Assembly: GCF_000787575.1 (NCBI RefSeq) | Contig: NW_012236514.1 | Coordinates: 124,001-188,000, forward strand | DNA: 64,000 nt | From: Acytostelium subglobosum LB1 | Taxonomy: Eukaryota > Evosea > Eumycetozoa > Acytosteliales > Acytosteliaceae | Direction of reading: 5' to 3' | Part shown: positions 1 to 38,035 of the stretch, piece after piece | Position numbering within the stretch: position 1 is the first letter of the stretch | Layout of the letters: the number at the start of each line of letters is the position of its first letter | Notes under the pieces: generated by a model | Told to the model about the DNA's origin: nothing | Seen by the model: only the letters and a program-made list of their open reading frames with translations | Database searches by the model: none | Position numbers and translations under genes: made by a program

Positions 1-2252
1 GTACAACAAAGTGTGGAGAATAAGTTTGTAAGATAGGTAGGCAGGTAGGAATAGAGGAATGTAATGTTATTGGATAATGGCAATGAGTGGAGTGGAGGAG
101 TGACCTCGAGGTAATAGGTGATCACAAGTGAGAAATGAGGGTTATAGACTATTGTCAATGTGAAACCATCAGGTGCAATGGAATTAATTAATGGATTGGA
201 AAAGGAATGGGGACGAAGTTGTTTGTTTGATTGATTGATTGCTTGAATTGAATGAGAATGGAGTGAAGAGAGTGAGAGCTTGGCTTTGGGTGGAGCGATG
301 TGGTGCATGTTCAACGAAGAGCGTGTCTCTTTCTCTGGCAGGCCTGGCAACACAATCACACTCTTACACTCACACTCAGCAGTCAGGTGATGATGGTGGT
401 GGTGGTTCTTGGTTTGGTTGGATGTGATGACAGCACGATCATGATATATTTACCAAGAGCAAGACTTGGCACCAACAACTACATTGAGCATCATCACCAC
501 CATCATACCAATCATAATGAGCTCATGATTAGAAGAGAGGCGACGATTACGAGTGGTTAACAACAATTGTTGTATTTAAAGAATGGTGATGAGTGGCTGA
601 GCTCAGGGGAGGACGTGGAATGGAACACTAATGTTTGAACAAACTAATACGCGATCAAGAAAGTACTCACAATACTCACACACCCATTCATTCATCAATC
701 ATGTGACTTCATAGTGAGTGCTGTGGGTGGTGAATGGGAGTTGTTGTTGTGTGATGTGGTGGATGGCTGCGACTTAGTAGTTGTCTTGCCGTTATGCCAA
801 TGCACAGTAGTGTTGCTATTACTATGATTGATGGGGGAAAGGTGTTTATGTGTTGTTGAGCAGCAATATGGAGTTGATGCTCGAGCATCAAACAATGTAC
901 ACACACACAAGCTTCGAATGTAAGTACGTGTCGTCCATCCATTCATTCATTCTTTCATTCACCTCTAGCAACTCCAACGGTCAACGAGCAATGGAGTGAA
1001 AGCCTTGAGTAGTTGGGGCGAGAACAATACAAGTCCACCTACTACTAAAGGTGGTCGGAAACAAAATTTGTATGGTATCACATGATCCAGTTATAATAAT
1101 ATTATAACCAGGTAAACACTCGTCTGTTGCACTTTACCTACCCTATAATTATTATTGATGATGTTATATTATTAACCTGTTCATATGATGATGATCTGGT
1201 ACCTAGTTGATTCGAACTAAACTAATTAATGTCTAAGTCTATATATTATTATTATTATTATTATTTAGATGATAGAAGAGTGATTGGAAATGCCAGCCAG
1301 TCACTGATGATCAATCAAATAGTGGGATTTATGATAAGTGACAATGATGATGAAGATGATGAAGATGATGTTTGTGGAATCCACAAATACCATCGTACAT
1401 ATTATTGATGGTCCAACAACAAGAACAACAACAACAACAACAACAACATACAACACATCACATTTATGTTGTTGATTGAAACATACCAAAGATGGATGGA
1501 TATTGACGAGACGGAAAAGGACACATCATACCATACTTGCAAGCACCTTTTCAAAGTGACACTGGAGTGAACCGGCCGGCCTGAGATGAGATGCCCTGGC
1601 CGTGATCATCCACAAGTGTATGGTTGTAATGGGCGAGTGTGAGTGATTAAAAGATTGATTGATTGATTGGTATGATATGTTATGTTGGAGTAAGTGATTG
1701 AATGAGTTGAGCTCAGTGAGTGGCTGTGATCGTAAGCAATGGAGACCATGGCAACAGGTTCTCTCACTACCATATCGGTGGTGGCCTGTACGTGATGCGT
1801 AGCTGATGTGTGATCTCATCTCCGATGCTGATTAGAAAATTGATACCAATTGTATTAGGTTGATAGGATAACATAAGATATGATATGATACTGATGAGAT
1901 GTGATGAGTTATTGATTGGTGGTGTGTAAGTGTGTGTGCGTGTGTGAGAGTTAGAGGTGATTGCCACATTGAGTGGATGTGGGATGCATTGGCAATGGCA
2001 ACTTGTGGAACGCATATGATGTTGCAAGATAGATGAGATTGTGTATTTGTGTGATGTGATGATGTAAGTGATCGTGTGAATGGATATAGATTGTATATAG
2101 ATCCCTTATCTATATAAGTTGCTTTGATTGATTGATTGATTGATTGATTGATNNNNNNNNNNNNNNNNNNNNNNNNNNNNNNNNNNNNNNNNNNNNNNNN
2201 NNNNNNNNNNNNNNNNNNNNNNNNNNNNNNNNNNNNNNNNNNNNNNNNNNNN

Positions 2253-2285
<33 letters not shown>

Positions 2286-3644
2286 GGCTGGGCTTGGAGG
2301 GTTATCCCTCACACAATGATTTTGTTGCGCCTGGAGGCACAAAGAATATATGTTGTTGATGTTATGGAAGTTGATGGTTGTAGTTGGATTGAAGAATGAA
2401 CTGGTTGAAGTTGGAATGTGAACCCTACCTATTATTATAATAAATTAAAACTACACTACTAAACTATTTTTATTATATATATGTATGAATGTATATATAC
2501 TTATAAATATATCTAGATCGATATATTACAATGACCAGGTGTCTGGGTAGATGGAGACCCTACATCGTCCGTGATGAACATTGGGAGTTGCAATGAATTA
2601 TCCAGGAACAAGGCTTTTGTTAATTATTGAGCCATGACTTTGTGCCTCACTTCCTCACCAACCTTGCACAGACCGTAGCATCACTGGGCATTCTAGGTCA
2701 GCATGATGTTGTTAGTTACATCACGATCAAGGGTATGGTATCATGTTCATTCTTTTTCATTCTCTCATGTGATCAATTATCAAACATTCGGAATGACTGA
2801 CTCTGATGAGGTCCACACATTGAACTTTAAGGGCGTTCCGATTGCGCTGGATCGTTAGCTGAGCTGAGGGGCACCACATGATTGATCTTTTTTGTCTCTC
2901 TCTCGTTCAGTAATCAATCAATCATTCACATTTATATGATCAAGAGTCACGACCAAAGTGACAACCAATCAACAAATAGGGAGGTGGACAAGTGCTCGTC
3001 CAAGTAGCGTCGTCCTCGGATGGATGTGGTGGGGTGGGTTTTGGTGCGTGAGGGTTTATGCCCTACCAACGCAAAACAAGGCCCTTGTTGGGGGCTTGCT
3101 GGAGATCACCCCGACATGACCCATGCGTGTGTTGCGACCAACGTGGGTAATTGATTGGATGGACGGATGGTTGGTCTGGGCGACTGTTGCCTCAGCCAAT
3201 CAATCGCTAACGATTGGGCACCGTTAAATCGCTCAAAAAGTAATAGGCGTTCACCTACTCACTACAACTTCTGCATTCGTATTATCATTCAATCAACCAA
3301 TCATTCAATCATTCAGTCAATCACACTTCGCTTCACTGCACTTCACTCTTGAATAACTGTTTGACCTTTCATGGGTTCCTGTTCGTCGTCGACAAGTGGG
3401 AAGCGCTGCGAGATCAGGAGCATAGCACTCTTGTGATCAGTCGCGAATAACTCGCTTCGTTGTCGTCCATTTATTCGATTCTACATAATATCCACAATGG
3501 CAATGGATAAGGGTACTGACTATGAGCGAGTCAGTAGAATGGGTGATCACTCACTTCGAGAGGCGCGAGCGAGTGCAAGAGAGATATTGGGGACCGTTGG
3601 TTGGTTGACCAGTCTAGTGCGACCACAAATGCTATCGCGACAGT
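1..3644. other. Long gene-poor, repeat-rich spacer
   Basis: I see no convincing gene here. Open frames are short, rich in His/Thr/Ser from CA and TC repeats, and resemble no family I know. The stretch holds (ATT)n near 1242-1266, (CAA)n near 1426-1446, TTGA runs around the assembly gap, and a possible hairpin near 3196-3217 (CCAATC paired with GATTGG). No T-arm-like tRNA signal is visible. The part from about 2,520 to 3,640 is less repetitive and could hold promoter sequence or a non-coding RNA, but nothing in it identifies one. Confidence 0.5.
2123..2284. repeat. (TTGA)n tetranucleotide tract interrupted by a 100-N assembly gap
   Basis: TTGA/ATTG units run into the unknown bases at 2153-2252 from both sides, in the same register and orientation. 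The gap is exactly 100 N, which is usually a placeholder, so the true array length is unknown. The assembler probably broke on this repeat. Confidence 0.9.
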
Positions 3645-6600
3645 TCATAGTACCTTGCACATGCACACTCTGAAGTCCTTCCTTGTGAACCACGCTCGCT
3701 TAAGCTCAAGGGCAAGGTCCTCAAGCTTGACGGGTTTGGCCAGATACTGACACATACCGCTCAAGAGACACTTGTCCTTGTCCTCGCTGAAGGCGTTCGC
3801 GGTCATTCCAACGATATGGGGCCCGCTGTTGGGGAACATCTGTCGAATCTTGGAAGTAGCACCGCAGCCATCCAACTCGGGCATCTGCATGTCCATGAGT
3901 ACGACGTCCACCATCTCGTTCTTTTCCAGATACTCGACGGCTTCCTTTCCATTCACAACAAACACAATCTCATCACCGTCATATCCCATTCTGGTCAAGT
4001 ATCTCTTTGCTACCTTTTGATTCACGAGACTGTCCTCAGCACTATAATTGATTGATTGAACAGTTAGTAACTGTTTGATTGATTGATTGATTGATCGACC
4101 AATTATACATACACCATGATCTTCAGGGGATACTTCCCACCGATTTGTTCGAGAGGTACTTCGTTGTCAAGGTTAAAGGAGTTCTTGCGGTTGGGTGATT
4201 GGCTGCTGTCAAAGGTAAATTGAGGTAGGACAAGTCCAGGCGATTGGATCAATGGTGATGGAGAGAAGTTGCAACTGATGCTATCGTAGATGGCCAATGG
4301 TGAGCATCTCCTCGCGCGCTTGAATGTGGGTACAGGTGATGAGTCGTCGAAAGTGTCGTCAGATTCTTCTTCATTATCGTCTTCATCCAACCTGTGCTTG
4401 ACCTGTGGGTTTGGTCGAGATTGCTGATGTTGTTGTTGTTGCTGTATCTGTAGCTGTTGTTGTTGTTGCTCATGGGATAGAGCGTCGCCGCCACCCCCAC
4501 CACCACCGAGACTGGCGAGGGAACCAGGACTCTGGAAGGTGATGATTGGCGGCAGCTCAATAGCATTGCTCTTGGTAAAGTATAGTAGGTTGGTCTCCAA
4601 CATCTCTCTGAGTGTCTTGTTCTTGATTGGTCTCTTTAGCAATGGCATGAGTTGCGATGGTTTGTTGTATCCGACCAAGATCGGCTTAAAGTTGGTATTG
4701 GTGTCATTGGTGTATCGCACCAACAGGTCCTGCTGGGATGAGTCTTCGGCAACATTCTTCCATTCGGGTTCGTCGATGAGGAATGCCACATCGAGTTTCT
4801 TTCCAACCTGTACATTGGCCTTGAGTTCATCAATGACCGTCGACATCTCGGCGATGGACGTTACAACGTTTGTGCCCAGCTCCCACTCGCGGGTCCACCC
4901 AGTTACCATCGCTGCAAACTCCTGTCGCGTCGTCATGAGTATGACCTGTGACTGCTTGTTGCCAGACTGCGACACCATCGTGGGGCTCTGTTGCAGTATG
5001 TTTGGGTCAGGGAGAAGGGGTGAGCGCCTGGCTGGGACTGCGGCCAGACACTTGAGGAAGGGACTGTTGTTGGCGTCAGGGAAGAACACCTGCACTGTAA
5101 AGTTGAACACCGAGCCCTTCTTTGGCTCGCTTCTGAACCAGATGTCTCCGCCAAGTACCTGTGTCAGACGCTTGGAGATGGCCAGTCCCAGACCACTGCC
5201 ACCATACTTGCGGGACATGGACGCGTCGTACTGTGAAAAGGCCTGGAAGAGCTTCTCGCGTCCCGCCTCAGGTATGCCAATGCCAGTGTCCTCAACCCAG
5301 AACTGTATCTTGCCATAGCGACCGCCCATGTGGCGTGAGGTCAGGTGAGATGATGACTGTGACAGGGACAGCGGGTCGAACGAGCAGCCGACCCGAATGG
5401 TGCCGCCCTCTGGCGTGAACTTGACAGAGTTGGACAGCAGGTTGGTCATGACCTGAATGATTCGATAGTAGTCGCCAACGACCACGGGTAGCGTGTTGAA
5501 GTCAATCTGATAGATGATCTCCAGATTCTTCTTCTCAACGAGTGCGGCCACAATGTCCACGCTGTCCTCCACGATCTTGTTTGGCGTGAACTCTGCCTCT
5601 TCGAGTGTTATCTTGTTCTCCTCGAGCTTGCTTAGGTCCAGGATGTTGGTGATCAGTTTGAGCAGTGCATCGGCACACATGTTTACAGTCTTGCAGCAGT
5701 CCAGTTGATCGGAGGACAACGTCTCTGAACTGATCAACCATGAGTTCATTCCAATGATGCCGGCCAGTGGTGTCCTCATCTCGTGTGACATGGTCTGCAA
5801 GAAGATGGCCTTGCACTTCTCGGCCTTCTCAATGCGATCCTGTGCGGTCTTTTGGTCGTGCGTGTCGGTACACGAGCCAATCCAACGCACGGGTCCGCCA
5901 CTTGTCTCGCGGTACGGCTCAGCGCGAACCAGGAACCAGCGGTCGCTACCGCCTGCTGGACTGTTGAGGAGGATCTCGGCCTCGAATCGCTTGGTGTTCA
6001 CGAGACAGTCGACCCAAAGGCGGTCGGTGGCTTCGCCCGAGCCGCTGACATCGCTCGCCAGCGAGGCCCAGGACAGTCGCTGTCCGGGCGCGTCAACGCC
6101 AAGGAAGTCGATCCACTTTCTATTTACAAACTCGATGACGCCTCGCGAGTCCGTCACCCATACGATCTGTGGAATGGACTCGAGTATGTACTTGAGTCTG
6201 ATCTCTGTGCAATGATCGACGCGCTGCTCTATGTTGCTCTGGAGTGACTCGAGCTTGTTGCGGTACTCGCGCTCCAATGCCAATGTCTTGTACTTGGTGA
6301 CGCCCTCTTTGATGACCTCCTCGGCCATGAAGTAGAAGCGTGGCGCACCCGTCGACGAGCGGCCCATCATATCAATGGTACAACGCTTCCAGATGACCTG
6401 GTCTGTGAATAAATCGTCCTCCTTTGGCACGTAGCCCGAGTGGACGTATCTAGGATATGAGAACTTGACCATCTTTCCATTCTTTAAACACTTGACCATA
6501 TTCTTTGTCCACAAAGTCAAGAAGTACTCTGGCAACTCCAATTCCTCTCTCGCCAAATATCCATCCAATGTCTTCTTCACAACGTCCTTGATTGGTGAGA

Positions 6601-22944: not shown

Positions 22945-23099
22945 ATTATTTAGTTGTTGTTTCAGACACATTTAATCAATCACCCAATCACATCACTGCC
23001 AAGTGTGCAGTGTATAACTTTAATAATAACAAAGTCCCACAATTGTATATCTAGATAGACAAGACGACAGAGTTGAGTAATTGTTTATCATCACGGCGA

Positions 23100-23466
23100 C
23101 CAGAGGTGCCTTGGACTCAAGTGATGATTGTTGTTCCAAAAAGATGTTACCATAGCCCTGGATGAAGTTCCAGTCCAACAGAGATACTTAGGTTTGTAAG
23201 GGCATGTGGAAACTGAACAAAGAGCGATGACTTCTGTTCTAGTACCATGAAAGTAGTCAACTGACTGTTGACTGTGGGTGCCGATGCTGGACCCAATGTT
23301 ACTTCACTGCCACTACCAACATATGTGCTGCCCATGATGACACCACCTTGGCAATCAACTGTGATCACACCGTTGTTGTTGGCGTTGGTGGCGATGTTGC
23401 TGGCACTGGATGCTGTGTTGTTGAAGATCAACTTGGAGTGGTCTTGTGAGACTAGTGTGAAGTTAT
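23100..23466 (-). pseudogene. Adhesin-like gene fragment (mosaic piece 1)
   Basis: Read on the minus strand, this encodes pieces like NNGVITVDCQGGVIMGSTYVG and GSGSEVTLGPASAPTVNSQ. These are nearly the same as the repeat unit of the decayed gene at 30985-34956 (its 31840-32110 part). The first 50 bp match another part of that gene (31541-31600). There is no start, no membrane anchor and the frame closes quickly. It is a copied fragment, not a gene. Confidence 0.85.
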
Positions 23467-23887
23467 AACTAACAACAGTTTTGGATTGTCTGCTTCAGCA
23501 GCAACGGCATCAAATGGCAACGATATCATGGATACCTCACACTTCTCTCTTCTATTGGAACAGCGCTCAACATTGGAGAACCCCCCTTTCTTGGTTAACG
23601 TCAACGCCAACATCACAGTCGATCGGGCCACTTTGCTCATCTCTGGAAGTGGAGTGTCTGGCAATCTAATGGTGAAGAATGGTGGCAGTCTTACTATCTC
23701 TGACAATGATGCCTCCACAGTCACGCTCTCGGGCACTGGCGCCAACTCCAATTTGATATACATCAACTCTGCACTCCAGAGCTCAACAATCAATATTCAA
23801 ACATTTGACAAATCCACGATCACAGCAAATTGTTCAGTTGGCGCTATCCTTGCCGACACACATATGTTGGTGGCGGCAGTGCTGTAA
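23467..23887 (+). pseudogene. Inverted adhesin-like gene fragment (mosaic piece 2)
   Basis: Homologous to the same adhesin family but on the opposite strand to its neighbours. The plus strand reads ITVDRATLLISGSGVSGN, GGSLTISDNDASTVTLSG and SSTINIQTFDKSTITANC. It corresponds to roughly 28240-28560 of the intact gene and 32340-32600 of the decayed one. An open frame of 133 codons survives but has no signal peptide or anchor, so expression as a protein is unlikely. Confidence 0.85.
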
Positions 23888-24385
23888 ATAACGCTGTCAC
23901 CGTCGAACACACAATAGGGACATCCAATTCTGATGGATGAACTGTTTGACAAGTTGACAGACACACTTGTACGGTTGGTGGCAGAGTTGTGGTAGCTCAT
24001 TTACGAGTTGCATCACCAATCAAATTGACACTGGCCGGTGTGTCGTCAACAATTGAAAGGGTGTTGTCTTTATCGCTAACATGGAATGTGCCACTGAGTC
24101 CACTGGCAGGGATGTTCAACGTGCTCTGACCACTGACACTAACAATGGCCTGCCGCCAAGTGGTGAGAGGAAATTCAGTTGTGATTGCTGCCTCACACTG
24201 ATCGTGAGACTACTGTTTGCCTTGTCAAACATACAGCAAGTGCTTATACTTGTAACAGTTATAATTTCACAGAGTAGGCGCTCAAGCCATCATTTTTGGA
24301 GAAGGAGGACGAGCAGTCGAATGCACTACCAGTGATAGTGACGGACAAGGCTGGACTGGATGTCAACGTCATGTTTGGATAGGTT
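23888..24385 (-). pseudogene. Adhesin-like gene fragments (mosaic pieces 3 and 4)
   Basis: Back on the minus strand, the segment resembles the family blocks with SNSSSIRIGCPYC, the Asn-rich turn and GTFxVSDxST (compare 28680-28930 of the intact gene), broken by stops and frame changes. From about 24246 it continues with a further Ser/Thr-rich adhesin-like piece ending near 24385, where it joins the condensin-derived fragment. Confidence 0.75.
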
Positions 24386-24575
24386 ACGTAATGAATGTCC
24401 GGTGGAAGGATGGTCGATATCTCTGATGCTTGGGCGTTGGCTGTGAGCACGGTGGATTGACGACCGCGTGGTGGCTCAAACATTGAGTCTGGAGGTGGCG
24501 GTGCATCAAAGTCTATAGTGGTCTGTGTCTTCTTCTTGGATGACGTCTTCTTCTTCTTGTGTCCATTGTGCTGAT
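24386..24575 (-). pseudogene. Duplicated fragment of the condensin CAP-H gene
   Basis: About 190 bp match 35875-36085, inside exon 2 of the condensin subunit gene, on the same strand. The shared peptide starts MFEPPRGRQSTVLTANA and runs to STILPPDIHY. Relative to the source it lost 6 bp (a Leu-Lys-Lys stretch) and carries scattered substitutions. It is fused in frame to adhesin-derived sequence (HYVTYPNMTLTSSPALSV), giving a short chimeric frame of 74 codons. Nothing suggests expression. It shows that material from the neighbouring gene was copied about 11 kb away. Confidence 0.9.
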
Positions 24576-24763
24576 CATCTAAGTAATCTAATCATCACAT
24601 CAAATGAATTGTGAAGAGTCTGATTTTCTCACCATTGTCCATCTATCCTTTTATTAGATGGTTCTCTGATATTATGTACTTTCTTCATCGCCATGGAGCA
24701 CATTGAATTAATAAATCTATTTGTCGACACTACCATCATTCAGAGTGTCGTCCGTCCACTGTA

Positions 24764-26576
24764 TCATATATTCTTGCACACTGCGCAGTGCAGCACATTC
24801 ATTTGTAGACCATACTGCCTGACATGTCTCTCAAAGGCACTTTCGCAGTTCCACATGTCTCCATTGCGGGCGACATCCATCAGGTGTCGGTAATAGGGGC
24901 TGAGATAATGTTGGTAAATGTTTGTCCAAACTTTAAGAAGATCATAATGGCAGTATTTATGTACAGTATGAACCATGTTATCCACTTCTCGTACAGTCAA
25001 GATGATGAGTGTCTTGACGAATGACTCCAAATCGTCCGCCTTTGTCGACAAGATATTGAATTTATCATCAGCAAGATATTGGAGAACTCTGTTTGATGCA
25101 GTGTAGATGGTCCCTTCATAGGGGGTGGGAGATAAGGTGTCGGATATTGACGATGACCAGACAATGAGAATCGGACCAACATAGATAATGATGTTGGACG
25201 GTCGGATATCTCTATGAATGATACCTTTTTTGTGGGCCGAGATGATGGTATCCAGGATCTGAGAGAAGGTTGAATGTCAGTGTTGGTATATTTCACAGGC
25301 ATTCGCCACAACATTGATATTACCATGGGGAAAATGTTGAACTTTGTTGTGGAGTCAACCACCTTGCCAGCTGGTGAAATGATGATCCAATTGGAGCCTT
25401 CTGCCTTGATTGTTGGGACTCGAGGACCAGTGAGCTCCTTCAAGACTGTTACTTCCCGGGTTTGGTCCGATTGCTTCTTGTATACTTTAACGATAACATC
25501 CATTGGTCCCATCATTGCTGTGTAGACGAAGGATGACAATCCGGAGGTCTTGTACTTCAGGGTATCGAGTATGGGTTGTGGGACATCTGGGATGTTGATA
25601 TGAGTAGCTGGTCCACGTAGCATTGCCATCAAGAGGTCGAATCCTATGGTCTTCTCTTTCTTCGTCTGAAACGAGAGAAGGTGTGGACCATTTCGCAGAT
25701 ATGTAAACTCTCCATGATCATTCTTTGTCACTCTCCAGAAGCAGATGTGTTTGCCAGATGTGAGGAAGGCATCGATTGAAAGATGGAACGAGTTCTTCAA
25801 GGTGAACTCCGCATAGTAGAGGACTTGACCTGAGTCAGCGGGTGTTGGAAAGTTGGAGCCCTCAACCTTGGTGTCTCCAACGACAATGAACCATGTCGGA
25901 TCGAGAGGTTTGTTGTCATCGTGAATAACCCAATCGGGTACATATTGATGGGATTCTGCATCGAGAAATGGGCGTTGAGATGTATCGACAATGGCCAAGA
26001 GCGGTTTTTTGACCATCTTGTTGTACGCTCTGTTAAACTCATCCACTAGATATTCATGTAGCCTTTTCTCTTTGGCGTACTCATACTTGCCAAAACTGCT
26101 ACAAAAGTCATCCAAGGCAAAGGAATAGTTGGTGTTGTGCCAAAATGAGTACGAATCAACCTTCACAATATGCGGAGAAATTCGCTCGTGGAACTGTGCA
26201 TATGATACAGATGATGTTGGTCGATGGGCCTTCGAAACGAAGTTCTTCACCATCTTAATATCGTCGACAATCTGATCAATCTTATCAGATTCTTGGTTGT
26301 GTATGTATGTTAGTATTGAAGACATTGTGCCGATATTGTTTGTACTTACGAGTTTGGGAACTTGTGCCAGTGATCTCTGCAATCGCATCCAAGATATCAT
26401 CAATTACAGCATCCTTGAATACGTAAGGAGGAATCAAAAGTCTTGCTCTGGTCAACCTGATGAAGTTCTTTCCTGCGATATCTTGATCCCAGAGCTTTGA
26501 TTACAGCACCATCAAAGTTCTTGTGCTTGAGCCAAGCACTGACTTGATCTGGTGATGATTCTTTGGTGAGTGACAT
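24764..26576 (-). pseudogene. SAM domain / nuclease-like / protein kinase-like protein, probably disrupted
   Basis: Exons 26576-26350, 26291-25324 and 25258-24764 give about 562 aa if one extra base near 26,490 is ignored; as read, that base breaks the frame after FDGAVI. The start is a SAM-like domain (SPDQVSAWLKHKNFDGAVI then KLWDQDIAGKNFIRLTR). Residues about 100-300 include VPDWV and VVGDTKVEG, reminiscent of a PD-(D/E)XK fold as found before the kinase in fungal FunK1 and Crinkler-type proteins. The C-terminal kinase has VIVKVYKK, the hinge IISPAG and HRDIRPSNI. The DFG position reads LIVWSSS, so the metal-binding Asp is Val (25160-25162). Both introns have GTAAGT or GTAATA donors and ACTRAC boxes. 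Frameshift plus lost Asp point to a decaying gene or a pseudokinase; a sequencing error could explain the first but not the second. Confidence 0.7.
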
Positions 26577-27384
26577 GGCGGAGTGATAGTGAAAGGAGAG
26601 TTGTGCAAGTGATAAATGTAAGTTGGGAAGAATGATGTTCAGTGATAAAAGTAAAGTGAAATATTTTTGTAGTATTTGTTGCTTGATGTTATAAAATGAA
26701 TGATGAATAGCATCAATGATCCTTAACACACCATCAATGCTGTACTATCATCTTTGTTAATGTTGCTAATGCAGCTCATTTCTTCTTTAAATTAATATAA
26801 AGATGATGAATGAATATGTTGTTATAATAGTGATATATAGATAGTTAAGGTTATCACTTTGTGAAATGATGTATGTTTGTGTATCTGTATGTGTAAGTAT
26901 GTTTGACTCTGAAATGAATGAATGAATAATGGTGTGTTAAGGGATCTGTTGTTCATTGTACCACACCAAATAAATAAAATTAATTATATAATTAATGGGG
27001 TATTGTCACTTGTTGTGAGGAGGGTTCGGATCGGACTATCCGGAGTTCATAGAAAGACACAAGAATGTTCTACATACATATAAACATGTTTCTGTACAGT
27101 TGACGTATTGGTGTTCTTGGAAATGTATACTCCAAAAACCACCACTGTGCAAGAAGTAAAGAAAGACCTCAATCAACAGAACGTGGTGGTATGATCCCAG
27201 AATCAGTCATCCAAACGATCAATCATAAAACGAACAAATCTTGATTGCCTGGATGGCGACCTTGCTGAGGACAAATTGTGCATCAACCGATATGTAGAGA
27301 AGAATTGGGTGATTCAACAATTCTATCCAAGTTATGGACTCATGACTATGGCACTGCAGTGTGGTATCAATCAAGGATTAATAT
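26577..27384. other. Intergenic spacer in the accessory island
   Basis: AT-rich upstream DNA of the SAM/kinase gene (to about 27,000), then moderately GC sequence with no clear gene. A 23-codon frame at 27123-27194 (MYTPKTTTVQEVKKDLNQQN...) has non-repetitive composition and could be a remnant of something coding, but I do not recognise it. Confidence 0.4.
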
Positions 27385-30300
27385 TCATTTATCATCGTTG
27401 ATTATTGAGTATCCTTCATTTGGACATCGAGTCTTCTTCCATCGACGATAGAACAGGAACACAGCACCGACGACCAGCACAGCAAATGCCACCGCACTTC
27501 CAACAAGGATTCCAATGAAACTACCCATGGTCATACCATGGATGTTCAAAGTCATTCGGTTGTTGGTAAAGTCAACAGAGAACTTGGTGGGGAAGGTCAA
27601 CGTCGGAGCCACATCGGTCGACTTGGGCCACACCATGGTGTAGGGCGTACTTTGTGGCATGGTCACATCAATCAGACGGTAGGTGTCATGCGCTGGGTTC
27701 TTTGAGTCGAAGCTCACAATAGCTTGGCCATGGAAGAGGAACGACTCGGAAGTGCAGGTCATCGTGGCAGCTGAGAACGATGATGATGAGAATGGGTTCT
27801 TGAACTCGATTGAACTGTCTTCAGAGACTGTGACGAATGATCCAATGTTTGGAACAGGGTTGGCAACCACGAGGATTGTTCCATCTAGTTGCATCTTTGA
27901 TCCAGAGAGGAGAGTGAGGTTGGCAGCGACCAGATGTGCTTTGGACACAAGTGATGATTGTTGTTCCAAGACGATGTTTCCATAGCCTGTGGCAGAGACA
28001 GACTTGGCATTGTCGAGTGTGACTGTGCTGTAGTTCTGTTGACGTCCACCACCTGGGCAATCAATGGTGATCACACTGTTGTTTGTGGCGTTGATGGAGA
28101 TTTTGCTGAAACTGGAAGTGTTCGTGAGGGACACGGTGGACTGGTCATTGACCTTGATATCAAGGCTTGTAAGGGCAAGAGGGAACTGAACCAAGAGAGA
28201 TGACTTTTGTTCAACTTCCATGAGAATAGTCGACTGACTGTTGGCCGATGTTGCCGATGCTGGACCCAATGTTACTTCACTGCCACCACCAACATAGATG
28301 TTGCCAAGGATAGCGCCATTTGAACAATTGGTAGTGATCGTGGATTGATCCAACGCTTGGACATTGATTGTTGCGCTTTTATCTGCAGTGTTGGTGTAGT
28401 TCAGGAGGGAGTTGGCACCCGAGCCCGAGAGCAAGACTGTGGCATCATCATTGTCAGAGATTGAAAGACTGCCACCATTCATGACAGTGAAGTTACCCGA
28501 CACACTAGTACCAATGATGGCCAGAGTGGATTGATCAACTGTGATGACCGCACTGACATTGTACAAAGGCGGATGATTCACCAGTGTTGAGTTCGGTCCC
28601 AAGAGAAGTGATATGTTAACTCGGACGTCGTAGTACTGTATCTGTATAGAGTCTCCAAAGTACACGTTACTATTTCCAGTGATGACACTGTCGTTGTAGA
28701 GTTGACATCCTTGGCATTCAATGTTGATTGATGAGCTGTTCGATACGTTGACATTTACAAAGTTTACATATGGTGAATTGTTACTGTAGCTCATGTACGA
28801 GTTGGCATCAGCGATCAGGTTGACACTGGTCATGATCGGAAACGTGTCAAAGATTGAGAGGGTACTGCCTTGATCGCTCACTTGAAATGTGCCGCCGAGT
28901 CCAAAGGCAGGAAGGTTCAACGTACTCTGTCCACTAACCTTGATATTGACCAAGCCGCTAAATTGAGGTGTGATTATCAGATTGGATTGTTTCTCCACAA
29001 CAATGCCGCATGGGCTGGGTCCAGCAGCTCTTATTATTTGATCGGGACATGAAACATAGATTGATGAGTTGTTAGAGACGTTGACCATTGCCAAATTGAT
29101 AGGCAGACCACCTATTGTACCATTGCTGATGTAGCTAAGGTGCGAGTTTCCATCGGCATTTAGATTGAGATAGGCCCATTGGTTGCCAGCGACGTAGACC
29201 GTGCTTTGATCACTCACTTGGAAGTTGCCTCTGAGCATTGGTGCTGTTATATTCAAGGAGGAGTGGCCACTGACCGTGATATTGATGTTACCCGAAACAG
29301 GTGGGAGTATAGTTGCATTTGATTGAAGCACCACAATGCTAGAGAACGTGTAAACACTCCTCAATATCGATGATTGATTGATTGCCAATGCGCTGTTGTT
29401 GACCATGATGCTGTCAAAGTCGGCATTGATAGCGAGTGGAATGTTGATGGACGAGTGGTCAGAGGACGATACGCTCAAAGTTAATTGATTGAAAACGTCA
29501 ACGAATTGGAAGTTGATGGTCGAGTAGGTGCTGGCGATCAAGTTGATGGTAGGGGGTAATGAGATTAAGGGTTGAACAAGTTCCACTGATATTGAGCTCC
29601 TTTGATCGGCCTCCAACGTACCAGAGAATGCATTACCAATGATCGACATAATGGCATTGTCCGATGTTTTGATCGCCATTCCATTTTGATCGAATGAAAT
29701 ATACGTCTGGCCGCCAGACGTGGTCATGTTATTCTGGTCATAACCATTGTCATATGTCAGCATAGGTACGTTGGCGTTGGATAACTCCAAGCAGTTGGAT
29801 GTCATCGAGATCCGACTGTTTACTTGGTCATACACTTGGAATCTACCGGTTATAAGATTGCCTACACTTAGGTTGAGTGTTGCATTGCCACCAGTGAGCG
29901 AAAAAGACGAGTTTGTGTCCATATATAGATCTAAGATCGTAAGCTGGTTGTTGTTGGCGGGAATTGACATCGATGTGTTGAACAAACCGATTGAGCCCAA
30001 GTACAAGTCGGTAATCAGGGGTGTGATTACAACGTCCATATAAAGATTGATGACAGTGTCGGCAGTTGATTGATCAAAGGAAAGGGTGATTGGATGGATG
30101 AGTTCAAAGTCGGGAACCCGGTTTACAGTAATTGAAGCCATTGAACAATTGGCGAATCTAATAAAGTAGTTGGCAAGCTGGTTTGGGTCCCTAAAGGAGA
30201 TGACAAATTGGTCCTGAGAATTGGTGCATGATGGTACATTCCCATCCGTCCAAAAGTCACCTGGATACACCGGTTGGTTGGAATCGAATACACATGAGTT

Positions 30301-30589
30301 TGGATCATTACAATTATCTGCGATTGCCCAGTAACTACCTCCTACATCAGATTGATTGATTGATTGATTGATTGATGGATGTGATGATGTCAATACAGTG
30401 TCAAGTCGACTGACCGACGGATTGGCAGAATGATCACTTACCATTAGCAACAGTGTTGTTGTCCAAGTTCGCTTTGTTGTAGTTGATATTATTACTTTTC
30501 CCATTGCATTGATGAAGTAGACACAATATCAACAACAAAGTTATTGAATTCAATAACTTTGTTATATTATGTATTTGTATACCTGCCAT
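27385..30589 (-). CDS. Large secreted single-pass membrane protein with beta-helix-like repeats (adhesin-like)
   Basis: 1034 aa from exons 30589-30442 and 30341-27385. The long downstream open frame begins inside the intron in a different frame. The true start is MAGIQIHNITKLL followed by the hydrophobic ITLLLILCLL and then Gly-Lys-Ser, a signal peptide, joined in phase 1 (GTAAGT donor). The extracellular part is Asn/Ser/Thr-rich, with many N-glycosylation sites and repeats of the kind 'GTFQVSDQSTxxI', 'NSSxIxIxC' and 'VNLIADANSYMSYSNN', which look like coils of a right-handed beta helix. A single transmembrane helix (about 988-1015, GSFIGILVGSAVAFAVLVVGAVFLFY) and the short basic tail RRWKK end it. 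Probably a cell-surface or sheath protein. Family unknown to me by name. The decayed paralog lies next to it. Confidence 0.82.
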
Positions 30590-30984: not shown

Positions 30985-33900
30985 TTATTCTTCATCATCA
31001 GCGTTGATTATTGGAACCTTTGAGTATCCATCCTTTTGATTCTTCTTCCATCGACGATAGAACAGGAACACAGCACCGACGACCAGCACAGCAAATGCCA
31101 CCGCACTTCCAACAAGGATTCCAATGAAACTACCCATGGTCATACCATGGATGTTCAAAGTCATTCGGTTGTTGGTAAAGTCAACAGAGAACTTGGTGGG
31201 GAAGGTCAACGTCGGAGCCACATCGGTCGACTTGGGCCACACCATGGTGTAGGGCGTACTTTGTGGCATGGTCACATCAATCAGACAGTAGGTGTCATGC
31301 GCTGGGTTCTTTGAGTTGTAGCTCACAATAGCTTGGCCATGGAAGAGGAACGACTCGGAGGTGCAGGTCATCGTGGCAGCTGAGAACGATGATGATGAGA
31401 ATGGGTTCTTGAACTCGATTGAACTGTCGCCAGAGACTGAGACGAATGATCCAATGTTTGGATGAGGGCTGACCACCGCGAGGATTGTTCCATCTAGTTG
31501 CATCTTTGATCCAGAGAGGAGAGTGAGGTTGGCCGCCGTCAGAGGTGCCTTGGACTCAAGTGATGATTGTTGTTCCAAGACGATGTTTCCATAGCCTGTG
31601 GCAGAGACAGACTTGGCAATGTCGAGTGTGACTGTGCTGTGGTCACCAACATAGACGTCACCAAGAAGTACACCACCTGGGCAATCAATCGTGATCACAC
31701 CATTGTTTGTGGCGTTGATGGCGATGTTGCTTAAACTGGAAGCTGTGTTGTTGAACATCAACTTTGAGTTGTCAAGTGAGACCAGTGTGAAGTTGCCTGC
31801 AACAGTGTTCGTGATGGACATGGTTGACTGGTCATCAACTGTGATACCAAGGTTTGAAAGTGCAAGTGGGAACTGGACCAGGAGCGATGATTTCTCCTCA
31901 ACTACCATGAGAATAGTCGACTGACTGTTGACTGTGGGTGCCGATGCTGGACCCAATGTTACTTCACTGCCACTACCGACATAGGTGCTGCCCATGATGA
32001 CACCACCTGGGCAATCAACTGTGATCACTCCATTGTTGGTGGCGTTGATGGAGATGAAGCTGGAGATTGATGCTGTGTTGTTGAAGATCAACTTTGAGTC
32101 GGATAGTGAGACAAGGGAAAAGTTGCCTGCCTGTGTGTTTGTGATGGAGGCGATGGACTGGTCTTCAACATAAATGCCAATGTTGGTATTGCCAACAGAC
32201 TGAACAAAGAGTGATGACTGCTGCTCCACCACCACTCGGGAGTTGGTCTGGCTGCTAGCAGTGGGTGCCAATGATGAGCTAATTGATACAGCACTACTGC
32301 CACCAACATATGTGTCGGCAAGGATAATGCCAACTGAACAATTGTGATTGAGGATTGTTGAAGCGCTTGAACATTGATTGTTGAGCTTTGTAATGCAGTG
32401 TTGGTGTAGTTTATGTGAGAGTTGGCGCCTGAACTAAGCAGCATAACTGTGGCTGCCTCATTGTCTGAAAGTGAAAGATTACCACCATTCATGACGGTGA
32501 AGCTGCCAGACACACCTTGGCCAGAGAGGACCAAGTTGGATTGATCGATGGTGATGATGGCATCAATGATGTTGATCAAAGGAGGGGGATTGACCAATGT
32601 TGAGTTCTGTCCCAAGTTCATCGAGATGTTAAACTGGAATTCTAAGTTGGATGGCGAAGGGTTTCCAAAGACCACAATGCTATTGCCAGTGATGACGTTG
32701 TCGTTGCACAGGTAACATGAGGGACATTCAATGTCGATCGTTGAACTGTTCGACACCTGGAGAGATATTAGGCTACTAATACTGGTATCATTGTTGCTGT
32801 ATCTCATATATGAGTTGGTATCGGCAATCAGATTGACTTGGGCAGCAGATATGTCAAAGATTGAAAGGGTGCTTCCAGGGTCACTAACTTGGAATGTACC
32901 AGAGAGTGCCATAGCAGGTATGTTGAAGGTGCTCTGTCCACTAATCTTAACATTGGCCGTACCCTGGCCGAAAGGAGTCTTTGTCAAGTTGGACTGATGC
33001 CGCACCACAATGTTGGACACATCATATATCATTAGTACTTGAGTACATGAAATATTGATTGATGAGTTGTTGGAGACACTGATGTTTCCCAAATGTGCTA
33101 ATTGACTAGTGTGGCTCAGATGAGAGTTGTTATCAGCATTGAAATTGATTTGGGTCTGAGTTTGGGTGACCCAATAAGTGTCAATGATGGAGAGAGTGCT
33201 TTGATCAATGACTTGGAAGGTTCCCATCAGCTGATGTCCAGTTAAGTTCACTGCAGACTGGCCACTGACCATGATGTAGGCACTGCCAGTAAGAGTGGGG
33301 AGTGAAATGGAACTTTGTTGTTTCACTACAAAGCTGGTGTTATATACTCAATGAAGATGATGGATTGATTGAAATATCACTATTGTTGCTGACTGTTAGG
33401 CTGTTGATGACGGCATCGATAAAATGTGGAATGATGATGGACGAGTGGTCTGAAGCAGAGGCATTCAATACTATTTGTTGTGACCACCCAGCAGCCTTTC
33501 CATAATTGAAGTTGATCGTCGAGTTGGAGTTGGCGATCAAAGTGAAGTTGGATTGAAAAACTGAGTATTCTTGTACATCCATAAATATTTTGCTCATTTG
33601 ATTGGCTTGCACTGTTCCAGAGAATGCATCACCATTGATCGACATGACAGCATTGCCGATGCTTCAATGAAGGAAAATCCATTCTGTCGATCGAATGATA
33701 TATTCGTGTTTCCACCAGATGATGACAGGCTAGTGTTGCCATAGCCATCAAAATATGCCAGTAGTGGTATGTTGGCGTTGTACGACTCCAGTGTGTTGGG
33801 AGTAATCGAGATACTACTGTTGGCCTGGTCATAGACCTGGAATGTGCCAGAAATCACAAATCCTCTCCCAAGGTTTAGTGTGGCATAGTCTGTGAGTGAT

Positions 33901-34716
33901 AAGTTGTAGTCTTGAAGGTTGGACATGATGATGGTGATGTTGGACTGGTGGGCGATCAGGACTGCGGTGATGCCAGACTTGGGCCCATTCAAAATGGCGA
34001 TGTTGAAGTGGCCGGACAGGTGTGATTCCCAATGAGGACACAATGACCGAGGTTAAGTGTTACCCAATGTACTGGAAAGACTGACGACGGCTGTTGAGGC
34101 GGAGAAATCATAAGAGAAACAAGGGATATCTACAATGGTGATGGAGGTGGCAGAGTTGAAGGCAATCGAGATGTTGGGTGATATTGAGGCTTGGATGTTC
34201 GAGGGCGACCATGAGATTGAGTCATCAATGACGATTAGTGTCGAACCAGATTCAAGGGCATTGGACTGAGTTGCCAAGAAATCCGATGCACTCTGTGGCT
34301 TGATTGTTCCATAGATGGTGGCGTTCCCGAGGAAGATGCTCTTCATACTCAAAATACCATTCACCATAGCACCATCGGTAACTGTGATCAAACAACTTGG
34401 GCAATCCTCGATAATAGAGTTGTTGTTCATGGTGAGTGTTTGGATTTTAAGCGAGGTGTTGAACGGCAATGACATGGTTGGGAGATAATGTGATTGAGGC
34501 AAGTGAACATTTGGCGAATCTAACAAAGTAATTATCATCCGGGTTTGCTGAATTCTGAAAGCCGATCACCACTTGGTCATTTGGATTGGTGCATGAAGGG
34601 CCATTTGTCCCATCATTCAAGAAGAACATTGGATACCTAAAATTGACGGCATCGAGAACACAACTATATTGATTAATGCAGTTATCAATGATAGCTGTAT
34701 AGATTCTACCTGACCC

Positions 34717-34783
<67 letters not shown>

Positions 34784-34956
34784 CCAAATGTTATTATGAT
34801 GATGTTGAATGATTGATCAATTCTCAGACAAGTCTGATCGTCTGCCTGACCTACTTACCTGTCACAGAGGTGTCATTGCTTTCACCAGTACATAGATGTA
34901 ATAGTAGTATTAACAACAAAGTTATTTTATATTTGTTTCAATTGTTAACAATCCAT
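30985..34956 (-). pseudogene. Decayed paralog of the adhesin-like membrane protein
   Basis: The whole architecture of the neighbouring 1034-aa gene is present: a signal-peptide exon (ITLLLILLLHLC near 34,900), an intron with GTAAGT at about 34,858, the Cys-containing N-terminal block (AIIDNC...SCTNPNDQVVIGF), the repeats, and the membrane anchor with tail (GSFIGILVGSAVAFAVLVVG, RRWKKNQKDGYS). The coding sequence, however, changes frame near 34,490, 34,045, 33,640, 33,330 and 32,340. The ATG matching the start of the intact gene (34956-34954) is followed at once by a stop and is out of frame with the signal peptide. The last 600 bp are almost identical to the intact copy and stay open, while the 5' half is diverged. 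Hence a pseudogene whose 3' end was recently duplicated or gene-converted. Expression of the anchor portion alone cannot be excluded. Confidence 0.85.
34717..34783. repeat. (TTGA)n tetranucleotide array in the pseudogene intron
   Basis: Nearly 17 uninterrupted TGAT units, the longest such array in the window, inside the first intron of the decayed adhesin-like copy. The intact copy has about four units at the same place (30354-30374). Confidence 0.95.
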
Positions 34957-35130
34957 ACTTATAATAAAACCGAGAATAATGGCCCAACAACATCAATTGA
35001 GCTCATTTGACGATCGATCCCAAACAAAAACCTTTCCCTCATTAGCCTGATCTGATCGATCTCAAATATCTTTCCCTCATTTGCCTGATCGAATACGTTT
35101 TACTCGTTAGGTACCTAAAAATAATATAAT

Positions 35131-37818
35131 TCACTTGTGAATGGCAAAGTTACCAAGTTGTTCTTCTGTCTTGCTAGGTTGTACAAGGGATAGTCCTTTC
35201 TCATTCGCTAGATGTAGCACACAGATGAAGGCCAGCGCCACAGAGACATTGCTGGTCTGTGCTCCAATGTTCAATCCATCAATAACCTCTGCGAACTGAT
35301 TGCTTGTCGTTGTTGTTGTTCGTGTATCTTGCGTCGTCTCGGTTGTGTCTATCAGTCGCCACACAGAGGTCTTGAGCTCCTTGACATCAATCCTCTTTGC
35401 AACCTTCTCATAGGCAATGTCCAACTTGGCAACCTTGTTTGGTATGTCCACAAGCTTGCCACCATTGATACCAATGGCCGCAGCGTCGGACATGGCACCA
35501 CCATCGCCACCATTGTCAAAGTCGGGTTCGAAGCCACCTCCTCCCATGTCATAGTCGCCTCCGCCCATGTCACCACCGACTGCATCGTCAAAAGAGTCGT
35601 CGTGATCGCCACCGCCGCCTCCTCCAAAGTCATCATTCAAGCACTGAGAGCTTGGGAAGTCATATTCACTGCTGTTGTCTATCTGTCTATCATTCACCCC
35701 ACCTTGGCCAGTCTGTTCTCTTGAGTATAGTCTCTTGAAGAACTGATCTCTCTTGCTCAACTAAGGGCGATGGGTCAGTATGGACGCGATGCTCCGCACA
35801 CGTATGACCTCGATACTTACAGGTGGTATGATCCATTGTGGCTTGTTGAATAGTCGACTGAGTTGTGATTGATCGTAATGAATGTCAGGTGGAAGGATGG
35901 TCGATATCTCTGATGCTTTCTTTAGGGCGTTTGCTGTGAGTACGGTGGATTGACGACCGCGTGGTGGCTCAAACATTGAGTCTGGAGGTGGCGGTGCATC
36001 AAAGTCTATAGTGGTCTGTGTCTTCTTCTTGGATGATGTCTTCTTCTTCTTGTGTCCAATGTCATCGTCACTGTCCTGATCATTTGCTGCTGTGGACTTG
36101 AGTGATGATCTTGATGCTGATGAGTTGGCTTTGAACTTCCAGTGCTCTGGTCCCAGCCAGTTCTGATGATCAAAGAATCCAAACTCCTCCCAGTTGTCCG
36201 AGTTGACGATGTTTGGTGTCCTAATGTCATCGCCGCCGCCGCCCTGGTCGTCATCAAAGTCGCCACCGCCGCCACCACCCATGTCATACTCAAAGTGGTC
36301 TCCGCCACCGCCACCAAAGTAGTTGTCTGGCACAGCGTCGTCGTTGTCCTCTCTGTCGCTCAGGTGGTCATTGTCGAATGCGATGTTGTCCTCGACGTCC
36401 AAGTCGATCTGGCCGGCATTGTCGTATACGTCCTCCTCGTCCATGGCCTTGGTCACCGTGCTCTTGGTGCCCCAATCACTAAACAGGGAGAACGTCGGAC
36501 AGATCACTGTGTCACCCTTTCCGCCCGCCTGACCAGTGGGCAGTGGGGCAAACAATCGCTTCCAACTCGCTAGATTGATTGAGATGCCTGCTGCTGATTG
36601 AGAGGATGACGACGCTGTTCGATCGGGCGTGGATGTGGTGCTCTTCCTTGAGTCCTGGCTGATGATAATACCATCATTGTCCATCTCCATTGCGTCGTAG
36701 TGTGTTGTTGCTGGACGTGGTCCACTGCTTGTACTGTTGATGGCGTCATTGGAATCGAATACCAACTTGCAATCGCCATAAATGGACAGCTTGTTGAGCA
36801 GCAATCCCTTGGCACCGCCCTCATCAAATGCGGCCGATGTCTTGCCAAACAGGGGATCAAAGAAGAACTGCAGGTCAAACTTCTTGCTGTTGATATTGTC
36901 AATGTTGGCCTCGAGCGTGTTGATTCCCTTCTTCTTCTTCTTGAGCTTCTTCTCGCCATTGGCATCCTCTGCATTGTCAGCGTTGGGACGGTCTGCATCC
37001 TGGTCGCTGGCGTCATTCTCCGCGTCGCTGCTCTCCTTCTCGGCGTGTGACAGACCGCCCAGCATCCTGAATGTCTCTGTGTGGACCGAGTCGACACGAG
37101 TCGAGTAAATCTTGACACTGGCGTCCAATGTACACGAAGCCTTTTGGAAGTTTGTCATATCATCTTCCTCAACATTGTTCTCCAATACATCGCTAATGTG
37201 ATCAATCAAACTCAGTTGCCATGTATTCTTTGTATTGATTTTCTGATTGATTGATTGAAGTTAGTATGGAACTATCCTTGAATTTGGAGGTGTGACACAA
37301 CATACGTTCTCGTTGGACAACTTGATACAATTGGCGTAGATCTCTGTTATTTGATCGTTGGATAGCATTCGTTTGGACACTGCTGCTGGTTGTTTGTGTG
37401 TAGGCATCACTGACTTCCTCTTCATAGATGGTACTGCAGACAATTGCATGTTTGGTTGTAGATTCTTTGAAGTAGTACCAGCACCAGTGTTTGTTGTTGT
37501 TGTTGTCGATGTTGTTGACTTTGACTTTGTCACAGGCTTTGATGTTTCATCGTTGTCATCATCATCATCAACAACAACATTCAAGGGCTGCTTTGCAACT
37601 GCTTGTCTCTGCTGTTGTTGTTGACTGGCCAATGCAGCCATTGAGCTTGATGATATACTCTTTCTCTTCAACACCTTCTTCTCGGCCTCATCATCATTGA
37701 GCATCGCAACAGATTGTCTAGGTTGTTGTTGTTGTTGTTGTGGCTGTGTCTGTTGTTGCTTTGTACCATTTGTAATAGGATTTGGTACAGTAGATAGTCT
37801 CTTTTTCTTTATATCCAT
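35131..37818 (-). CDS. ncaph: Condensin complex subunit 2 (CAP-H / barren kleisin)
   Basis: 854 aa from exons 37818-37306, 37242-35821 and 35760-35131, all joined in phase 0, with TACTAAC and TACTGAC boxes in the introns. After a disordered Gln/Thr-rich start comes the kleisin N-terminal block. The join gives NENKINTKNTWQLSLIDHI, and further on TLDASVKIYSTRVDSVH and MLGGL; these match the conserved CAP-H pattern. The centre is acidic with Asp-Gly runs. The C-terminal part (FFKRLYS, KVAKLDIAYEKVAKRIDVKELK, then HLANEKGL) is the winged-helix region that closes the SMC ring. Kleisins bridge the SMC2-SMC4 heads in mitotic chromosome condensation. I start at the Met of MDIKKKRLSTV; an in-frame upstream Met at 37929 is less likely because the spacer there is leader-like. 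A 190-bp copy of exon 2 lies at 24386-24575. Confidence 0.95.
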
Positions 37819-38035
37819 TATTGTTGTAATATATATATCTTTATCTGTACACAGATAATATTGAAGTCGAATGTTGACAACTAAAGTACAAGACTTTGAA
37901 AAAGAGCGCGATTCTTCAATTCCAAGCAAAATTCATAACTTTTTCAGATTTTGTGTGGATGAACTCATTTCCGATGATCACACATTGAGATCACAGATAA
38001 AGATACAGATACAGATATATATACATAGATACAAG

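What the first reader, a model, noticed from the sequence alone, without database searches (positions are those of the whole stretch)
23100..24575. Scrambled mosaic of adhesin-gene and condensin-gene fragments
Within 1.5 kb, at least four pieces of the adhesin-like family sit side by side, one inverted, and are fused to a 190-bp copy of condensin CAP-H exon 2. Both sources lie 3-13 kb downstream. Seen directly: matching sequence and the opposite orientation of the middle piece. Inference: repeated template switching or end-joining repair near this island, making a graveyard of local gene fragments. No transposon ends are visible at the joints.
Basis: partly seen in the sequence, partly recalled or inferred. 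Interest (0 to 1): 0.8.

Follow-up and report, generated by a model that had tools for sequence, protein, structure and literature searches.

The report
Decayed adhesin-like gene with captured fragments
In a social amoeba, what looks like a scramble of gene pieces is mostly one dead third copy of a neighbouring gene with a small internal flip, next to several short DNA pieces captured from other genes: an instructive but largely ordinary relic, probably of broken-DNA repair.

Summary
The genome is Acytostelium subglobosum LB1. The four adhesin-like pieces (23096-24197) keep the order of the open paralogue 27385-30528, except one segment, about 23466-23887, flipped in place: turning it back raises the alignment score from 213 to 505. 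Piece-by-piece synonymous divergence (0.3-0.8) is about that between the two remaining paralogues (0.4-1.3). So this is a third, similarly old tandem copy that died, not four fresh copies. The CAP-H piece (24387-24569, 94%) is a later arrival.

Two junction pairs carry short inverted repeats (windows set after seeing them). Repeated template switching is not needed for the adhesin pieces; break repair with captured filler is inferred for the rest. Misassembly is unlikely but not excluded.

The parts
23096..23157 (-). Piece A: remnant of the adhesin-like gene (paralogue 1 residues 848-868)
   Evidence: 90% to 27926-27987, 95% to 31540-31596
23176..23465 (-). Piece B: remnant of the adhesin-like gene (paralogue 1 residues about 706-793), open frame
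   Evidence: 85% to 31836-32124; Ks 0.34, Ka/Ks 0.34
23466..23887 (+). Piece C: about 422-bp segment inverted in place (paralogue 1 residues 640-746 aligned); frame open to 23887 with a 2-bp frameshift near its end; ends good to about 10 bp
   Evidence: 73% to 28611-28272 minus; turned back, it aligns continuously with D
23888..24197 (-). Piece D: remnant of the adhesin-like gene (paralogue 1 residues about 529-616), with a frame change and a stop
   Evidence: 67.5% to 28682-28999
24198..24386 (.). Unassigned spacer between adhesin remnant and CAP-H piece
   Evidence: no other match found in the genome as DNA or (24262-24390) protein, no Pfam match; weak similarity not excluded
24257..24271 (-). 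15-nt inverted copy (14 of 15) of the sequence spanning the left inversion joint (23456-23470)
24387..24569 (-). Captured piece of the condensin CAP-H gene (donor 35874-36062); possibly reaches 24578
   Evidence: 94%, 5 substitutions (4 synonymous), in-frame 6-bp deletion
24683..24772 (+). Captured 3' end of a HAD-hydrolase gene on another contig (C45:78959-79049)
   Evidence: 85 of 91, 93%
24764..26744 (-). Open frames of a kinase-like gene and a SAM-domain exon between the captured pieces; the annotated protein 086530 (P0003) covers the kinase-like part only, so that they form one gene is assumed
   Evidence: 26297-26703 is 82% like a SAM gene on C54
26739..26936 (-). Captured 5' end (upstream region plus first codons) of an ArfGAP gene, C38:32656-32861
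   Evidence: 189 of 207, 91%
26721..26734 (+). Left arm of a perfect 14-bp inverted repeat flanking the ArfGAP piece (right arm 26929-26942)
27113..27379 (+). Decayed captured exon of an unnamed gene at C38:51239-51597; firm blocks 27212-27236 (25/25) and 27291-27335 (43/45), the rest weak
27385..30528 (-). Paralogue 1 of the adhesin-like family, one open frame (086540)
30985..34854 (-). Paralogue 2 (086550), spread over several frames
35131..37932 (-). Condensin CAP-H gene, donor of the 24387-24569 piece (37261-37932 taken as its first part, without a Pfam match)

Best explanation
23096-24197 is the remnant of a third tandem copy of the adhesin-like gene, about as old as the two remaining copies. 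It lost both ends (about 528 residues before D and 179 after A, in the open frame of paralogue 1), gained frame changes and a stop, and had one segment of about 422 bp (23466-23887) flipped in place. Separately, short pieces copied from other genes (CAP-H next door, HAD on another contig, ArfGAP and an unnamed gene about 100 kb away) came to lie between this dead copy and paralogue 1. Shown: order, orientation, divergence, donors. Inferred: that the inversion and the captured pieces arose by double-strand-break repair through end joining with fold-back or captured filler DNA, rather than by transposition or serial template switching.
For: Collinear order in paralogue 1 residues: D 529-616, C 640-746, B 706-793, A 848-868. 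Turning C back raises the alignment score to paralogue 1 from 213 to 505 and to paralogue 2 from 186.5 to 470; of a 20 by 20 grid of boundaries around these ends, 23466/23887 had the best summed score, 975.0 against 974.5 for the next. Ks of pieces to paralogues 1 and 2 (B 0.31, 0.34; C 0.69, 0.79; 5' part of D 0.82, 0.74) is about that of paralogue to paralogue (0.38, 0.73, 1.28), with Ka/Ks 0.34-0.52. Disabling changes in D and at the end of C. Three further donors besides CAP-H, 91-100% in their firm blocks, against 0 of 4 control stretches with a non-self match of 45 bp or more at 90% or more. Inverted repeats between joints: scores 14 and 12 in 90 tests, largest in 200 shuffles 11.
Against: The windows at the D end and at the ArfGAP piece were set after these inverted repeats had been seen. 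No target-site duplication or poly(A) marks a mechanism either way, and microhomology between donor and target flanks was not tested statistically. Recent gene conversion in the 3' half of the paralogues (Ks 0.06) blurs the age of piece A. Repeat units within the genes make the assignment of B ambiguous, and C and B overlap in paralogue 1 residues. The Ks values rest on 44-101 codons each. Only four controls.
Confidence: 0.8

Rival explanations
1. One reading: each adhesin piece was copied separately from the downstream genes by repeated template switching or end joining, giving a true mosaic.
For: Pieces have different identities (95, 85, 73, 69%), and A and B resemble paralogue 2 most.
Against: A like gradient separates paralogue 1 from paralogue 2. 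Order is conserved and one flip restores a continuous alignment; separate copying would not be expected to give this.
Confidence: 0.08
2. The CAP-H piece is not a captured patch but the last remnant of a larger duplicated block (adhesin gene plus CAP-H), because order and orientation match paralogue 2 followed by CAP-H.
For: Same order and strand as 31540-36062. Four of the five substitutions are synonymous and the 6-bp deletion is in frame, as expected of a once working second CAP-H.
Against: About 4 changes in 44 synonymous sites against Ks 0.69-0.82 for pieces C and D, so they did not part at one time. An internal loss of about 2.9 kb is needed. Three other isolated captured pieces lie nearby.
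Confidence: 0.15
3. Assembly artefact joining reads of different loci.
For: Paralogues and repeat units can confuse assembly; no reads were available here.
Against: The pieces differ from the matching loci by 5-31% and no other copy of the spacer was found, so they are not misplaced copies. The assembly used Sanger read pairs from about 3-kb clones, Illumina reads and fosmid ends (PMC4334915, passages); 1.5 kb would fit inside one clone. The only run of N in the window is at 2153-2252.
Confidence: 0.04
4. The region holds a young chimeric gene made from the pieces, still coding.
For: B, most of C and the CAP-H piece keep open frames, and the CAP-H frame continues into the spacer as one 110-residue frame. 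The neighbours are numbered 086500 and 086530, so two locus numbers fall between, possibly gene models here. If a quarter of changes were synonymous by chance, four or more of five has probability 0.016 (of six, 0.038).
Against: The substitutions were not polarised and may lie in the constrained CAP-H parent. D is broken and C is antisense to B. No transcript evidence was available.
Confidence: 0.08

Closest known systems
Unprocessed (duplicated) pseudogene in a tandem gene array (recalled category)
   Same: Homologous to neighbouring array members, same order, frame changes and stop, truncated at both ends
   Different: Carries a clean internal inversion of about 422 bp and lies beside captured pieces of other genes
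Class 2 templated sequence insertion polymorphisms, described in humans (PMC5110952: abstract and passages seen)
   Same: Short pieces templated from other loci; no poly(A) run and no target-site duplication beyond chance at the three tested
   Different: Several pieces clustered within about 3 kb; an amoeba; no empty-site allele seen; RNA or DNA template not decided; junction microhomology not established
Short templated inverted insertions at breaks by fold-back (yeast, PMC11724301: search listing only)
   Same: Inverted copies of about 5-34 bp at repaired breaks are described; here 14 and 15 bp at two joint pairs
   Different: Seen here only as old relics, from sequence
Inversions with breakpoint duplications from staggered breaks (Drosophila, PMC3355041: passages seen)
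   Same: In-place inversion with a few shared letters at both ends (ATAAC)
   Different: Far smaller, and the shared letters are at most about 5 bp and partly palindromic

Membership tests
Duplicated (unprocessed) pseudogene | Homology to a neighbouring gene in conserved order | tested here: met
   one inversion is the exception
Duplicated (unprocessed) pseudogene | Disabling mutations or truncation | tested here: met
   frame change and stop in D, 2-bp frameshift near the end of C, both ends missing
Duplicated (unprocessed) pseudogene | No working product | not testable with these tools
   no reads; locus numbering suggests gene models may exist here
Class 2 templated sequence insertion (CAP-H, HAD, ArfGAP pieces) | Sequence copied from another locus, donor still present | tested here: met
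Class 2 templated sequence insertion (CAP-H, HAD, ArfGAP pieces) | No target-site duplication of 5 bp or more and no poly(A) | tested here: inconclusive
   longest words shared by left and right flank 3 (CAP-H), 5 (HAD), 3 (ArfGAP); 5 or more occurs in 266 of 2000 random pairs; no A or T run of 6 at the three; the fourth piece was not tested; old insertions may have lost such marks
Class 2 templated sequence insertion (CAP-H, HAD, ArfGAP pieces) | Junction marks of end joining (microhomology, small deletions, untemplated letters) | tested here: inconclusive
   none evident by eye at the CAP-H edges, no statistical test of donor-target microhomology; inverted repeats at two joint pairs, one flanking the ArfGAP piece
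Class 2 templated sequence insertion (CAP-H, HAD, ArfGAP pieces) | Empty-site allele | not testable with these tools
   one genome only
Transposon insertion | Terminal repeats shared by several copies, target-site duplication | tested here: inconclusive
   14-bp inverted repeat around the ArfGAP piece; its exact core only at this place among 42 loci; whole genome not searched for it; no target-site duplication beyond chance

The most novel reading that the evidence does not exclude
The captured pieces mark one episode tied to a gene family: the SAM/kinase-like gene (part of whose 5' region recurs at 35 further scored places besides its C54 relative) entered the adhesin array between the dead copy and paralogue 1 together with a string of host fragments, including an ArfGAP upstream region that now faces it, so that break repair built a new gene neighbourhood in one step. 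In favour: the HAD donor on C45 lies only about 0.4 kb from another copy of that recurring 5' region, and the divergences of three pieces (5/183, 5/90, 8/197) do not differ (chi-square p 0.51). Against: the ArfGAP and unnamed donors have no such neighbour listed, and the HAD piece lies at the other end of the gene here than on C45.
Probability: 0.15. Interest if true: 0.55.

Novelty: new member of a known kind. Interest (0 to 1): 0.3.

Why it matters
It shows, in a genome whose authors call it compact and rather static with transposons not abundant (PMC4334915, passages), a place where a dead tandem copy and several captured gene pieces accumulate without a recognised mobile element. If such clusters are typical of gene arrays here, social amoebae would be a convenient system for patch-type break repair. 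It also cautions that pieces side by side, one flipped, need not be a multi-step mosaic: one flip in a decayed paralogue explains most of it.

Tried and rejected
Separate copying of the four adhesin pieces was set aside on collinearity and like Ks. A source for 24198-24386 was sought by DNA, protein and Pfam and not found. The CAP-H line was computed in the wrong frame and is not used; one search gives the codons in the right frame (it lists six differing codons, one of which, K to Q, comes from the deletion). Two control searches of about 20 kb scored only 39 of 222 and 39 of 360 candidates and are not counted; they list gene-family matches and short repeats, none at 90% or more. The four counted controls were picked by low open-frame content; the window stretch 1-4400, second lowest, was passed over because it holds the run of N, and the other two are the lowest of six fetched C53 loci. 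The C47 cluster (L035) shows in its self-comparison only same-strand matches between tandem members. A 60-kb stretch of C53 shows one 54-bp tandem duplication at E 1e-10 and 50 bp or more. DNA folding of the ArfGAP piece was not unusual (z -1.2, 26 of 200 shuffles as good). A solved-structure search for paralogue 1 gave nothing below E 0.88. Literature searches listed the genome paper and general repair papers; no paper on this locus was seen in those listings.

Full report
What the genome is. A search with the open frame of paralogue 1 found two proteins, both of Acytostelium subglobosum LB1 (locus numbers 086540 and 086550), on a contig of 630,781 bases, the length of the contig that holds this window. 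The genome paper describes a hybrid assembly from Sanger read pairs of about 3-kb clones, Illumina reads and fosmid ends, 30.9 Mb in total, with transposons not abundant (PMC4334915, passages seen).

Checking the observation. A whole-genome search with 23100-24575 gave 11 matches, the place itself and ten others, all on the same contig and in the two downstream adhesin paralogues or the CAP-H gene. The CAP-H donor lies in an open frame that matches Pfam Cnd2. For 24198-24386, between the adhesin remnant and the CAP-H piece, no other match was found as DNA, as protein for 24262-24390, or in Pfam; weak similarity is not excluded, since one search also missed the D end included in its query.

The adhesin pieces are one gene. 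In the residue numbers of paralogue 1 the pieces run D 529-616, C 640-746, B 706-793, A 848-868, that is, in the gene's own order; C and B overlap, which I put down to repeated units in these genes. Only C is flipped. The match of D begins at 23888, directly after C ends at 23887. When C is turned back in a script, C plus D align as one continuous stretch: the score rises from 213 to 505 against paralogue 1 and from 186.5 to 470 against paralogue 2. Among the 20 by 20 boundary pairs tried around these ends, 23466/23887 has the best summed score (975.0), with near ties at 974.5 up to about 8 bp away, so the ends are good to about 10 bp. Against paralogue 2 about 160 bp (32125-32286) are missing at the B side of the flip; against paralogue 1 there is no gap. 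The simplest history is one in-place inversion with, at most, one small loss.

The pieces are old. Synonymous divergence between pieces and paralogues 1 and 2 (B 0.31 and 0.34, C 0.69 and 0.79, 5' part of D 0.82 and 0.74) is about that between the two paralogues over the same parts (0.38, 0.73, 1.28), and Ka/Ks is 0.34 to 0.52 (44-101 codons each). The falling identity from A to D, which suggested several copying events, is thus the family's own pattern: the 3' half of paralogues 1 and 2 has Ks 0.06 (Ka 0.07), which I read as recent gene conversion, while the 5' parts are far apart. Disabling changes are present: a 2-bp frameshift near the end of C, and a frame change and a stop in D; B and most of C stay open. 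This fits a third tandem copy that worked for much of its history and then died. Paralogue 2 is also spread over several frames; introns were not ruled out there.

The CAP-H piece is a later arrival. It differs from its donor by 5 substitutions (4 synonymous) and one in-frame 6-bp deletion, about 4 changes in 44 synonymous sites, far less than the neighbouring C and D pieces. An 8-bp match after a gap hints that it reaches 24578 (by eye); this is weak. Its order and strand equal those of paralogue 2 followed by CAP-H, so a decayed larger block is kept as a rival, but the unequal ages speak against it.

The graveyard continues. A genome search with 24500-27400 found three more donors (40 of 46 candidates scored): 24683-24772 is the 3' end of a HAD-hydrolase gene on contig C45 (85 of 91), 26739-26936 is the 5' end with upstream region of an ArfGAP gene at C38:32.7 kb (189 of 207), and about 27113-27379 is a decayed exon of an unnamed gene at C38:51.2-51.6 kb (firm blocks 25/25 and 43/45, the rest weak). 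The last two donors lie about 118 and 100 kb away on this contig. The pieces flank a SAM/kinase-like gene. Its annotated model, 086530, covers the kinase-like part only. The SAM region 26297-26703 is 82% identical to a SAM gene on C54, beside which lies a frame with a weak NTPase match. A short part, about 26297-26365, recurs at 35 further scored places, one of them about 0.4 kb from the HAD donor. Four intergenic-rich control stretches of 4.4 kb (picked; one candidate with a run of N passed over) had no non-self match of 45 bp or more at 90% or more (0 of 4; all candidates scored). Four controls are few.

Joints. Words shared by the left and right flanks of the CAP-H, HAD and ArfGAP pieces are no longer than chance, so no target-site duplication is evident, and no A or T run of six lies there. 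Microhomology between donor and target flanks was not tested statistically. Both ends of the inversion carry the letters ATAAC, at one end within the palindrome GTTATAAC. Among 90 comparisons of ten joint windows, two inverted matches stand out: 14 of 14 on the two sides of the ArfGAP piece, and 14 of 15 between the left inversion joint and 24257-24271; the largest score in 200 shuffles stayed below both. The windows at the D end and at the ArfGAP piece were set after these matches had been seen, so the test favours them. Short inverted copies at repaired breaks made by fold-back are described in yeast (PMC11724301, search listing only).

Verdict. Shown: a third, dead, tandem adhesin-like copy with one internal flip; a CAP-H piece; three further captured pieces nearby. 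Inferred: end-joining repair as the cause, and the timing. The divergences of three pieces are mutually compatible (p 0.51), which allows but does not prove a single episode. Without long reads or a second isolate the order of events stays open.

Noticed in passing
24764-26744: SAM-domain exon plus kinase-like/DUF6826 frames; the SAM part is shared with a C54 gene beside an NTPase-like frame, and 26297-26365 recurs at 35 further scored places: looks like a family with a shared header and variable C-terminal parts (resemblance to Crinkler-type genes is recalled, not tested).
   Followed up: partly
L032 (C45:77459-80549), 1013-1069 and 1501-1591: The HAD donor of the 24683-24772 piece lies about 0.4 kb from another copy of the recurring SAM-gene 5' region, a possible link between that family and the captured pieces.
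   Followed up: no
26721-26942: Perfect 14-bp inverted repeat enclosing the captured ArfGAP 5' end; the captured upstream region faces the SAM/kinase-like gene, a possible promoter capture.
   Followed up: partly
27388-28118 and 30988-31742: The 3' halves of the two adhesin-like paralogues are nearly identical at synonymous sites (Ks 0.06) while the 5' parts compared have Ks 0.7-1.3: recent gene conversion is likely.
   Followed up: partly
30985-34854: Paralogue 2 is split over several frames; dead or intron-rich, not resolved.
   Followed up: no
L035 (C47:239001-249000): Second cluster of distantly related family members in tandem, sharing the C-terminal membrane segment and tail.
   Followed up: partly
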